A DNA stretch of 64,000 nt, from contig JAFEMH010000733.1 of assembly GCA_022495995.1 (NCBI GenBank), forward strand, positions 577,953 through 641,952. The letters are read 5' to 3'. This stretch comes from Adenophora triphylla var. japonica. Taxonomy: Eukaryota > Streptophyta > Magnoliopsida > Asterales > Campanulaceae. The notes under the pieces were generated by a model. The model saw nothing but the letters and a program-made list of their open reading frames with translations, made no database searches and was not told where the DNA came from. The position numbers and the translations under genes were made by a program. Positions 7,790 through 40,249 of the stretch are shown here, piece after piece; within the stretch, counting starts at the first letter, position 1, and every line of letters begins with the position of its first letter.

Positions 7790-9320
7790 TGTTGGTCCCA
7801 AAGGTGACAACAAGGGTGAAAATACAGCTAGAGGAGGGGGGGGGGTGAATAGCTGTTTAAAATTTTTTGCCCTCGATTTAAAACTATTCCTCTATACTTA
7901 CAAAACCTCTTGCAGTGTATAATAAACTGCAAGTAGAGTTATAAAATGCACAGCGGAATAATAATGTTACAAAGCGGTTTTGAGAGAGGCGGTTTGTAAA
8001 GCGGTTTAGGTAAAGCGGTTTTGACAAGTGCAGTTTTACAAACAAGTGTAGTTTTGACAATGTTAACTCCAAACACTATTTTACAAGAATGGATATCTAA
8101 ATAAAGATCAAACAGAGAGAAAAGTAGATAATCAGTAAGCACAAGAAATAATAAATGCAGAAAGTAAGAACACAATATTTGGAGTGGTTCAATCGATAAA
8201 CGATCTACGTCCACTACCAAGATGGTTAGTCTTGGATTTTCAAGAGTGATTATACTATTGAGTATGAGAGATTAAAAGTTACAAAGATCGATACTCAAAG
8301 CTAAAATCTATTCTATGAAGATTGAATCCTAGACTATAACCAGTGTATCTCAAATGATTAATCTATGTGATTAAACAAGTGAGGTGTGTGTGTGTTCAAG
8401 ATCAAGGCTCTTTAAATCTTTGAGATGTAGAGCACAATTATTCTTGAAGTGTATATGGCTTGATTTCTGGGCTGGGGAATATTTCTTGAAGGTTGAAGAT
8501 GAAGATTCAAAGGACTTATGAATTTCTGGGCAGAGCTTCAACTTCTTATGAACTCACAACAATTTCTCAAGTTTCAAGCAAACTTCAAATGAAGAAGGTT
8601 GGGGGTATTTATACCTAAGCATCAGGAATATAGCCGTTGGACACAGCTGTTGTAAGGACAGTCCTTGATGCAATCCCATTATCCACAGCAACCACTTTTG
8701 TCCTTTGGAACTGTTGATGCAGGTAAAGCTGATCAGACCTCAGCTGCAATCAAGGTGGTTAGGACATCTGTCACCTTTTTAAGATCCTTGCAGATCTTGT
8801 CTGAAAAGTAGTCACGTGACAAGATATGGTGGTTGACATTTGATATTGCTGACGTGGATTCCAACGGTCAAAAGAGTTCACTTCAAGTAGCCAATCATTG
8901 GGGCGGTTCTGGTGATGAGCGGTTTGACAAAAAGCGGTTCCACCAGAAGAGGAATTCTTTAAGTGCGGTTTGAGTATGAAACTGCAAGGCAGTTGCATGA
9001 AGCGGTTCAAAGGGGTTTGCACTTAGGGGTTCAGAGAAGCGGTTTCAGACAAAGTCTCACCAGGCGGTTCCAGGAGCGGTTCAGCCTAGGCGGTTTTAAT
9101 GGGGCGGTCTGAAATTCTGAACTGCAATCCTCAGATCCAATGAGTCTTGTGCCAGTCTTCAAGCCTAAATTTAACCTATACTATAAAATGGACTTAGCTA
9201 AGAAATTGAAGTCTAAGCTTCATTACATAGGGTCCTAAAGTCCTTAAAATAAATAGGAGGTTATGGTATCAATCAAATCTTATACAAAATAGGAGGGTTA
9301 AAACATATGCATACCCAACA
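7790..9320 (-). repeat. element A 3' LTR (1531 bp)
   Basis: On the minus strand it starts TGTTGGGTATGCATATG and ends GGGACCAACA, with the TG...CA ends expected of an LTR. It lies directly between a purine tract and the satellite. It holds 13 GCGGTT copies, clustered at 8903-9103 (the U3 side) and 7974-8014 (the distal end). No partner LTR is in the window, so the edges rest on the terminal dinucleotides and the purine tract. Confidence 0.75.
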
Positions 9321-9336
9321 ATCTCCCCCTATTTGA
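9321..9336 (-). other. polypurine tract of element A
   Basis: On the minus strand AAATAGGGGGAGAT runs straight into the LTR start TGTTGGG. This is the typical copia polypurine tract that primes plus-strand DNA synthesis. Confidence 0.8.
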
Positions 9337-9847
9337 TTGATGCCATTACCCACTACAGCAAAAGCAAACATTGTACTTGGTAAAAACATGTCCATAAGAT
9401 CTAACATGGTAAGTCATGTCCCAAGTCAATGCACACACTAGCTTAAGCTATAGATTTCTATACTATCTGAAATATAAAAACTTACAATATGGAAAGTATA
9501 GAAATGCATTCAGTGCACTTAAAAAAATGTGAGTTTAAGTTCAAGTGCAGTTTAAACTGAATGTTTAAACATCAATTCAAAAGAGTGATTTTTAAGTTGA
9601 AAAATATTTGAATGAGGTTTAAGACCATAAGCGGTTTCATTGTTCTACAAACAAGCAGTTTGATATGAACAAGGTTTTGGAACCATGATGCAATTTCCAT
9701 TAATTCCCAAAGTGTTTACAGATACAGGAATGAAAGAAAATTACAAGGTTACAAAAACAAAAATAAAGTAAGTTGGACAAAAAGAAATACAAGAAAAGTG
9801 CGGTCCAACTTACAAAATGCGGTTCAAAAATAATTAAGGAGAAGCGG
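9337..9847 (-). other. 3' untranslated stretch of element A
   Basis: Lies between the env-like stop codon and the polypurine tract. No gene is visible. It carries several GCGGTT/GCGGTC copies (for example 9631, 9819, 9844). Confidence 0.55.
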
Positions 9848-38242: not shown

Positions 38243-38358
38243 AAGCGGTTTGGATCCAAGCGGTCAAGATGCAGCATGCGGTTTGACTATAAGCGGTTGG
38301 CTGCAGGCGGTCTTGACTGCGTGCGGTTTAAGCACAAGCGGTTTCAACAAGGCGGTTT
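38243..38358 (-). promoter_or_regulatory. dense GCGGTT cluster upstream of the env-like promoter
   Basis: Eight GCGGTT or GCGGTC copies in about 115 bp, all in the same direction, between the end of pol and the env-like TATA box, which lies about 290 bp further downstream. Enhancer-like placement is an inference. Confidence 0.5.
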
Positions 38359-38423
38359 TGAATTCTCAATGAAAATTTCAACCTAAACTCAACAAACAAG
38401 TTAGCAAATAAAAAGTATGGAAT

Positions 38424-40249
38424 TTATTTAAGTTCAAGCATACCCATTTCTCCTCTGAGAAAAGAAAATCTCTTGGAGTCAAGAGCCTTGGTGAGGATGT
38501 CAGCAATCTGGTTGTCTGTCCCCACGTACTCTAAATGGATATTCCTCTTCTCCACATGGTCTTTGAGGAAATGATACTTGATATCAATGTGCTTGGTCTT
38601 GGAATGCATGACAGAGTTGTTGGAGACTGAAATTGTTGAAATGTTGTCACACATGATAGGACAATTTCCTTCATGGATTCCATAGTCCACCAACTGCTGC
38701 TTCATCCAAAGGATTTGACAGCAACAACTCCCAGCAGCAATATACTCAGCCTCTGTGGTTGACACTGAAACTGAAGCTTGCTTCTTGCTGGCTCAAGCAA
38801 CTAGTCTGTTCCCGAGGAAATGACAAGTCCCACTAGTGCTTTTCCTGTCAATAGTACAAGCTGCATAATCTGCATCTGAATAACCTACAAGATCGAAGTT
38901 CGAATCTTTGGAATACCAAAGTCCAAGGTTAGTGGTTCCAGATAAATAGCGGATTATACGCTTGACTGCAATAAGATGTGCTTCTCTAGGATCTGCTTGG
39001 TAGTGTGCACATACACAGACACTAAACATGATATCTGGCCTACTAGCAGTTAAATAAAGTAATGAGCCAATCATACCTCGATATAAAGTTTGATCAACTT
39101 TCTTACCTTTGAGATCTTTATCTAGCTTATTGCCGGTGGCAATTGGAGTATCATATGCTTTAGCATTTTCTAATCCAAACTTCTTTATTAGCTCCTTGGT
39201 ATATTTGGCTTGGCTGAGGAAAATACCTTCTTCGCATTGCTTGATTTGAAGCCCGAGGAAGAATGTTAATTCTCCCATCATGCTCATCTCAAACTTGCTT
39301 TTCATTAGCTTTTCGAAACGCTTACAAAGTAACTCGTTAGTAGAACAAAAAATGATATCATCAACATATATTTGAACAAGTAAAGTATGATCATTGTATT
39401 TGGCAATAAAAAGAGTTGTATCGATTTTACCGCGTTTAAATCCTTTTTCTAGTAAAAATTTAGAAAGAGTCTCATACCATGCTCTTGGAGCTTGCTTAAG
39501 TCCATACAAAGCTTTCTGGAGTTTGTAGACATGATTGGGAAATTTGGAGTCTTCAAATCCAGGCGGTTGGGCAACATACACGGTCTCTTGCAGTTCACCG
39601 TTGAGGAAAGCACTCTTAACGTCCATTTGATATAACTTGAAACGCTTGAAAGAGGCGTAGGCTAAGAAGATTCTGATAGCTTCCAATCTTGCAACTGGAG
39701 CAAAGGTTTCGTCATAATCGATTCCTTCTTCTTGCCTATATCCTTGTGCAACCAACCTTGCTTTATTCCTAGTAATGCTTCCATTCTCATCCATCTTATT
39801 CCTAAATACCCACTTAGTTCCTATCACTCCTTGATCCTGAGTTCTAGGCACCAAAGTTCAGACCCTGCATCTTTCAAACTGGTTGAGTTCTTCTTGCATA
39901 GCAACGACCCAACTGGAATCTTGGAGTGCTTCATCAATCTTCTTGGGTTCAATTTGAGATATCAAGGAAGTATGCTCGTCATAGTTCGATCTCCTTGTTT
40001 GAACAACGGAAAACAGATCACCTATCACATTAGAGAGAGGGTGACTGATGACTTCTCGAACCTCTGGGGGTAAGTCTGGTTGGACAGAGGTTTGCTGAAG
40101 ATCTTCAATTGGAACGTCGTTAGATCCTTCAGCGAAGTCATGGAATGTAAGTTGACGAAGAGGTTCTATAAGCTGGATAGGGGAATTCTCAACTTCTTCT
40201 TCCCTTGGAGTTGCATCTGGAGTAGGAAATTCAGGTGCGGTTGTGACGA
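38424..40249 (-). pseudogene. element A reverse transcriptase and RNase H (Ty1/copia, SIRE-like)
   Basis: One frame runs from the D junction to TAA at 38424. It contains a pre-RT region ending in AMQEELNQFE, the copia RT core (GTKWVFRNK, ARLVAQGY, QMDVKSAFLNGE, then the catalytic YVDD near 39.37 kb), SRPDIMFSVC, and RNase H with DADYA and TTEAEYIA, ending with the ADILTKAL stretch. Two in-frame TGA codons, at 39858-39860 and 38793-38795, sit where the family has tryptophan, so each is explained by one G-to-A change; there is no frameshift. Integrase and gag are cut off by element D. It cannot give a working enzyme as it stands. Confidence 0.92.

What the first reader, a model, noticed from the sequence alone, without database searches (positions are those of the whole stretch)
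7974..40246. About 50 copies of GCGGTT on one strand of element A, almost none on the other
Counting by eye in 7790-12408 plus 36478-40249 gives about 51 GCGGTT and about 9 GCGGTC on the plus strand, against about one AACCGC. About two per strand would be expected by chance in 8.4 kb. They lie in LTR, UTR, intron, promoter-proximal sequence and coding sequence. In coding parts the motif falls in different frames (Thr-Ala, Gln-Pro-Pro, Asn-Arg), so selection is on nucleic acid, not protein. The conserved RT/RNase H has only one or two. Strand bias suggests an RNA-level role (the transcript carries AACCGC), such as binding by a carried protein, or a directional spreading process. Clusters in U3 and upstream of the env-like TATA box would also suit an enhancer.
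Basis: seen in the sequence. Interest (0 to 1): 0.87.

Follow-up and report, generated by a model that had tools for sequence, protein, structure and literature searches.

The report
One-way GCGGTT array in plant retrotransposon
A virus-like jumping gene, in what is likely a plant genome, carries the six-letter word GCGGTT 51 times on one strand and once on the other, with copies never closer than 12 letters apart, and the word is likely a DNA landing site for a protein that would switch the element on.

Summary
In 7790-12407 plus 36479-40249 the plus strand has 51 GCGGTT and 9 GCGGTC, against 1 AACCGC and 1 GACCGC; 500 shuffles gave at most 3 GCGGTT. Element A is the 3' part of a Sirevirus-like copia element on the minus strand, split by insertion B. 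The word clusters in U3 and upstream of the env-like gene. These are the two places where Sireviruses carry published palindromic 'RM boxes', one of which contains AGCGGTA. Here no copy is palindromic, and the word also fills the ORF3 intron and coding sequence. Sites are never closer than 12 bp (none of 20,000 random placements did this). They hold 58 of 84 CpGs outside RT/RNase H. They exceed what the ORF3 protein and codon usage give (17 against mean 4.7). A DNA-level protein-binding array, a one-sided relative of the RM, fits best. A VANC-like self-binding anti-silencing system is possible but untested. RNA folding gave no support for an RNA element. The own-genome and protein-database searches did not complete, so no sister copy of A was seen.

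The parts
7790..9320 (-). 3' LTR of element A (TGTTGG...CCAACA), with 14 GCGGTY
   Evidence: Ends read by eye; site counts
8903..9109 (+). U3 cluster: 10 GCGGTY, 290-491 bp upstream of the TATA-like box at 8613 and 216-417 bp inside the LTR edge
7974..8020 (+). R/U5 cluster: 4 GCGGTT
   Evidence: partly scored as a 14-bp tandem repeat
8606..8613 (-). TATA-like box of the LTR (TATAAATA), chosen from three TATA-like matches in the LTR
   Evidence: function inferred
9323..9330 (-). Polypurine tract AGGGGGAG, starting 10 bp before the 3' LTR
   Evidence: hallmark in PMC2829016
9631..9849 (+). Linker: 4 GCGGTY; the single AACCGC of A is at 10022
10049..12408 (-). ORF3 (env-like) coding stretch with 23 GCGGTY on the plus strand; in-frame stops split it in this copy
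36478..36825 (-). ORF3 exon-2 stretch on the far side of insertion B; no GCGGTY
36826..37761 (-). Predicted ORF3 intron (GT-AG), with 9 GCGGTT
   Evidence: splicing not shown
37762..37833 (-). Predicted ORF3 exon 1 (72 nt from ATG to donor)
37951..37956 (-). TATA-like box of ORF3
   Evidence: function inferred
38245..38357 (+). Cluster upstream of ORF3: 8 GCGGTY, 289-396 bp upstream of the TATA-like box at 37956
38424..40249 (-). RNase H and reverse transcriptase part; 2 GCGGTT
   Evidence: RVT_2 5.6e-76; counts; right limit by eye

Best explanation
GCGGTY stands 60 times in one orientation in the part of a Sirevirus-like retrotransposon held by this window, and it is likely a DNA binding site for one sequence-specific regulatory protein that would act on the U3 and ORF3 promoters. 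Shown here: copy number, strand bias, spacing of at least 12 bp, clusters starting 290 and 289 bp upstream of two TATA-like boxes, and a CpG kept where nearly all other CpGs of ORF3 and the linker are gone. Inferred: the word is a one-sided relative of the palindromic Sirevirus repeated motif (RM), standing at the RM's two positions and extended into R/U5, the linker, the ORF3 intron and the less conserved ORF3 coding sequence. Inferred: the protein reads an asymmetric site of about 8 bp (RDGCGGTY) and covers 12 bp or more. Inferred and untested: bound in number, it raises transcription of the element, or shields it from silencing. Which protein binds, a host factor or the ORF3 product, is not shown.
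For: 51:1 strand split and first rank of all 6-mers; at most 3 in 500 shuffles. No gap under 12 bp in 58, with 27 of 58 at 12-20 bp; re-placing inner sites in the 10 clusters of three or more gave 11.1 such gaps on average and never zero in 20,000 trials; a jitter control gave 8.6 and never zero in 300. 58 of 84 CpGs outside RT/RNase H lie in GCGGTY against 0.7% expected from base composition; CpG o/e outside the word is 0.03 in ORF3 and 0.04 in the linker. Excess in ORF3 over protein and codon usage (17 against mean 4.7). U3 cluster 216-417 bp inside the LTR and cluster before ORF3, as for published RMs. Comparator L135 has a palindromic array at the corresponding place: 4 exact copies at 6875-6966, TATA-like box 7215, ATG 7333.
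Against: One copy and only part of the element; no binding, expression or methylation data. RMs are palindromic and this is not. 23 of 60 sites are in ORF3 coding sequence and 4 in R/U5, which promoter action alone does not explain. Nothing explains why a DNA site must keep one orientation. The TATA-like boxes are simple pattern matches; the LTR has three such matches and 8613 was chosen. Some decay is seen: GCAGTT 8 against 2.6 expected, GTGGTT 5 against 2.7. An old decayed repeat of about 15 bp could mimic the spacing; one tandem array with the intact word is scored.
Confidence: 0.55

Rival explanations
1. VANC-like anti-silencing: the element's own ORF3 protein likely binds GCGGTY in DNA and removes silencing from copies that carry a dense, same-orientation array.
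For: VANC21 motifs are dense and in one orientation in VANDAL21, found in introns and between genes (PMC5735166). A has the same layout, with 9 sites in an intron and an extra gene, ORF3. The word's CpG survives where others are lost, as it would if protected from methylation.
Against: No VANC domain (DUF1985, DUF287) among Pfam hits at E 0.1 in three ORF3 pieces; the 12266-12408 stretch and exon 1 were not scanned. VANC sites are mainly non-coding and form tandem repeats, but 23 of 60 sites here are coding and one tandem array carries the intact word. Models of two ORF3 pieces are unusable (pLDDT 39.5 and 37.8). Methylation unknown.
Confidence: 0.18
2. RNA-level signal: AACCGC in the sense transcript is bound by an element or host protein, for example for packaging or export.
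For: Complete orientation bias and presence in coding, intron and UTR, all of which are in a full-length transcript.
Against: No distinctive structure at the motif in predicted sense RNA (0.571 unpaired; shuffled flanks 0.606, p 0.39; random hexamers 0.489, p 0.08). It does not predict clusters 289-290 bp upstream of TATA-like boxes. RT/RNase H, also transcribed, has 2 of 60.
Confidence: 0.1
3. Neutral spread: the word multiplied by slippage, small duplications or template switching in one direction, without function.
For: Short tandem arrays at 7989-8021 and, with a decayed form, at 8024-8060. Neighbours' flanks are slightly more alike than distant ones (0.331 against 0.307; random 0.261).
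Against: The other clusters are not scored as tandem repeats. The CpG of the word is kept while others are lost. It avoids RT/RNase H and exceeds codon-level expectation in ORF3.
Confidence: 0.1

Closest known systems
Sirevirus repeated motif (RM) boxes (Bousios et al. 2010, PMC2829016; outline and sections 6, 9, 10, 19 read)
   Same: High copy number, CGG core, U3 position and position upstream of the env-like gene; Inga's RM AGCGGTASTACCGCT contains the A-type arm AGCGGT.
   Different: All 13 published RMs are palindromic; here 0 palindromes and one orientation. 60 copies in a partial element against at most 32 in the paper; also in R/U5, linker, intron and ORF3 coding sequence.
VANC21 target motifs of VANDAL21 (Hosaka et al. 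2017, PMC5735166; parts 1-3 of 6 read)
   Same: Short motif, dense, one orientation, in introns and non-coding parts of an element that carries an extra gene.
   Different: Different motif; DNA transposon; mainly non-coding and tandem-repeated; VANC domains not found in the ORF3 pieces scanned. Binding was shown there and is untested here.
Copia relatives L135 and L136 (Labilibacter sediminis scaffolds, apparently plant contamination)
   Same: RT 63% and 61% identical to A; L135 has a repeat array before a TATA-like box and an ATG after pol.
   Different: Their own words lie on both strands of the linker: CTTCTG/CAGAAG 10:5 with 4 exact palindromes (L135), ACGCA/TGCGT 9:8 (L136). L135 has no GCGGTT or AACCGC; L136 has one AACCGC, in pol.

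Membership tests
Sirevirus | PPT AGGGGGAG placed 10 bp before the 3' LTR | tested here: met
   9323-9330, LTR edge 9320
Sirevirus | Several PPT copies clustered in the linker near the LTR | tested here: inconclusive
   Three AGGGGGAG on the sense strand, two of them inside ORF3; three in the window is not above chance
Sirevirus | Copia reverse transcriptase | tested here: met
   RVT_2 5.6e-76
Sirevirus | Placement in the Sirevirus branch of a phylogeny | not tested
   No tree was built; assignment rests on the PPT/LTR junction, the gene after pol and layout
Sirevirus | Env-like gene after pol (often present) | tested here: met
   ORF3 after RT/RNase H; no Pfam hit above cutoff in the pieces scanned
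Sirevirus RM box | At least 8 copies | tested here: met
   60 GCGGTY
Sirevirus RM box | In the LTR starting 200-400 bp after the PPT/LTR junction, and upstream of the env-like gene | tested here: met
   216-417 bp, and 412-519 bp before the ORF3 ATG
Sirevirus RM box | Palindromic, usually CGG-CCG | tested here: not met
   No GCGGT/ACCGC or CGGT/ACCG palindrome
Sirevirus RM box | Clusters define CpG islands | not tested
   No island caller run; CpG o/e 0.43 in U3 and 0.70 upstream of ORF3, sites included
VANC/VANDAL anti-silencing system | Short motifs dense and in one orientation | tested here: met
VANC/VANDAL anti-silencing system | Motifs mainly non-coding and in tandem repeats | tested here: not met
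   23 of 60 coding; one tandem array with the intact word
VANC/VANDAL anti-silencing system | Element-encoded VANC protein (DUF1985, DUF287) | tested here: not met
   Not among Pfam hits at E 0.1 in three ORF3 pieces; part of ORF3 not scanned
VANC/VANDAL anti-silencing system | Protein binds the motif and removes methylation | not testable with these tools
   Needs binding and methylation data

The most novel reading that the evidence does not exclude
A plant LTR retrotransposon has evolved its own address code: one asymmetric word, kin to one arm of a Sirevirus RM, written in one direction through its LTR, promoters, intron and even its gene, and read by its own ORF3 protein to de-silence its copies. 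That would be a VANC-type sequence-specific anti-silencing system in a retrotransposon, a class for which the listings showed none.
Probability: 0.18. Interest if true: 0.88.

Novelty: new variant of a known kind. Interest (0 to 1): 0.62.

Why it matters
The 2010 paper left the role of RM boxes open, and Sireviruses make up about 21% of maize nuclear DNA (PMC3599292, passage). A one-sided array gives a precise predicted recognition sequence and footprint, so the protein that reads it can be sought directly. If ORF3 reads it, the env-like gene of these elements would gain a function, and dense same-direction motifs as an anti-silencing address would exist in retrotransposons as well as in VANDAL DNA transposons.

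Tried and rejected
Viral contigs held no relative of the RT, by one protein (8 stretches matched a pattern) or an alignment (84 stretches). Plasmid records gave 4 copia-like RTs at 24-35% identity, phages none. The one genome-contig scan gave L135 and L136 (2 of 48 stretches).

Rejected: plain tandem repeat; protein-coding signature (three frames and codon shuffle); RNA-structure element; window-wide composition. In one search the A block 8001-12000 has the highest score of 16 blocks (z 32.5), but 36001-40000 (z 17.8) is passed by 16001-20000 (20.4) and 24001-28000 (18.6), which hold tandem arrays. The plant MYB core CNGTTR (recalled, from no call) fits poorly: 16 of 51 sites have A or G after GCGGTT. 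Two ORF3 models were unusable, so no fold search was run. PDB (one ORF3 piece) gave nothing; NCBIfam gave 4 weak hits below cutoff on one of three pieces, and Pfam likewise 4 on the same piece.

Literature: titles and abstract starts listed described no one-sided RM and no anti-silencing array in an LTR retrotransposon; these are capped listings of one open-access library. One search listed 10 of 176 papers holding GCGGTT and a retrotransposon term; none was opened. Opened: PMC2829016 (outline, four sections), PMC5735166 (parts 1-3 of 6), PMC12844716, PMC12859917 and PMC3599292 (passages). A passage of PMC12844716 mentions a sunflower Tekay element with an extra dsRNA-binding-like ORF. PMC9016345 is not held.
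Full report
What the element is. Element A lies on the minus strand. From low to high coordinates it has a 3' LTR (7790-9320), a polypurine tract AGGGGGAG starting 10 bp before the LTR (9323-9330), a linker, an env-like ORF3 (10049-12408 and 36478-37833, with a predicted GT-AG intron 36826-37761), and RNase H and reverse transcriptase (38424-40249; RVT_2 5.6e-76 in 38793-39857). The PPT position is a published Sirevirus hallmark (PMC2829016). 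No tree was built, so 'Sirevirus-like' rests on that junction, the gene after pol and the layout. Insertion B, itself holding a nested element, occupies about 12409-36477 (limits by eye). A ends at about 40249 against other sequence that resembles B's LTR end (by eye), and no second LTR of A is in the window. ORF3 of this copy has in-frame stops.

The observation. GCGGTT occurs 51 times on the plus strand and once on the minus strand of A; GCGGTC 9 times and once. It is the most over-represented 6-mer (51 against 0.63) and never passed 3 in 500 dinucleotide shuffles. Before it stands A or G at -2 in 49 of 51 sites, and never C at -1 or -2. The rest of the window has 4 and 2.

Where the sites lie. 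U3 10, R/U5 4, linker 4, ORF3 stretch 10049-12408 23, intron 9, upstream of ORF3 8, RT/RNase H 2, none in 36478-36825 or 37762-37960. The U3 cluster starts 290 bp and the pre-ORF3 cluster 289 bp upstream of a TATA-like box (8613 and 37956). The boxes are pattern matches, and 8613 was picked from three in the LTR, so the near-equal distances are suggestive only.

Spacing. Of 58 gaps none is under 12 bp and 27 are 12-20 bp. Re-placing the inner sites of the 10 clusters of three or more sites gives 11.1 gaps under 12 bp on average and never zero in 20,000 trials. Neighbours' flanks are little more alike than distant ones (0.331 against 0.307; random 0.261), and TRF scores one array with the intact word (7989-8021) and one with a decayed form (8024-8060). 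This suits a footprint better than recent tandem copying, though an old decayed repeat of about 15 bp is not excluded.

CpG. Outside RT/RNase H, 58 of 84 CpGs lie in GCGGTY, against 0.7% expected from base composition. CpG observed/expected without the word (both strands) is 0.03 in ORF3, 0.04 in the linker, 0.12 in U3, 0.12 in 36479-36825, 0.00 in exon 1 and 5'UTR, 0.19 upstream of ORF3, 0.23 in the intron, 0.25 in R/U5 and 0.44 in RT/RNase H. Forms one deamination away number 15 against 59 intact in the seven regions counted; GCAGTT is above chance (8 against 2.6), so some sites have decayed. CpGs in methylated plant repeats decay fast (established knowledge). The word has therefore been kept by selection, protected, or gained recently.

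Coding sequence. In the ORF3 pieces the 22 sites examined fall in all three frames (13, 6, 3). Shuffling synonymous codons gives a mean of 4.7 AACCGC and a maximum of 12 in 2000, against 17 observed. The word is favoured at nucleic-acid level even inside a gene.

Comparison with known motifs. Thirteen Sireviruses carry palindromic RMs, 12 with a CGG-CCG core, in the LTR and, where there is an env-like gene, upstream of it; the richest, Inga (AGCGGTASTACCGCT), has 32. A's word equals one arm of that type and occupies both places, but the other arm is missing (no palindrome). By the palindrome criterion it is not an RM, so I call it a one-sided relative. Two copia relatives in a Labilibacter assembly, apparently plant contamination (RT 63% and 61%), serve as comparators. 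L135 has four exact palindromes CTTCTG-CAGAAG at 6875-6966, with a TATA-like box at 7215 and an ATG at 7333; the locus ends 50 bases later, so its gene is not seen. L136 has ACGCA/TGCGT 9:8 in its linker. L135 has no GCGGTT or AACCGC; L136 has one AACCGC, in pol. That the array type at this place changes word between relatives is an inference from these two loci and the paper.

Mechanism. A DNA-binding protein with an asymmetric site explains the spacing, the CpG retention, the promoter positions and the scarcity in RT/RNase H. The orientation and the coding sites are the least explained parts. The nearest functional parallel is VANC21, whose motifs in VANDAL21 are dense and in one orientation (PMC5735166). 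By sequence this is not a VANC system: no VANC domain was found in the ORF3 pieces scanned. The RNA reading has no support beyond strand bias.

Limits. One copy, part of an element, species unknown, no methylation, expression or binding data, no phylogeny. The own-genome and protein searches did not complete.

Noticed in passing
12404-12408 and 36478-36482: Insertion B sits inside or beside one copy of the word: the flanking 5-mers read GGTTG and GGTTC (by eye), a target-site duplication with one mismatch.
   Followed up: partly
26290-34738: A further element C with about 2.87-kb LTRs, 99% identical, is nested in the second LTR of B.
   Followed up: no
1-7789: Satellite of about 171 bp that changes orientation around 5.7 kb (direct and inverted repeats); A's LTR starts directly after it.
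   Followed up: no
8024-8060: Short tandem repeat carrying a decayed form of the word (GTGCAGTT/GTGTAGTT) beside the intact R/U5 cluster.
   Followed up: partly
10049-12265: ORF3 of this copy is broken by in-frame stops.
   Followed up: no
L135 6875-6966; L136 3160-4771: Two copia relatives in a Labilibacter sediminis assembly (apparently plant contamination) have their own repeated words on both strands, palindromic in L135.
   Followed up: partly
H1-H4 (plasmid records): Four plasmid records (Kitasatospora, Streptomyces, Candidatus Protofrankia, Alicyclobacillus) hold copia-like RT at 24-35% identity; contamination or transfer was not examined.
   Followed up: no
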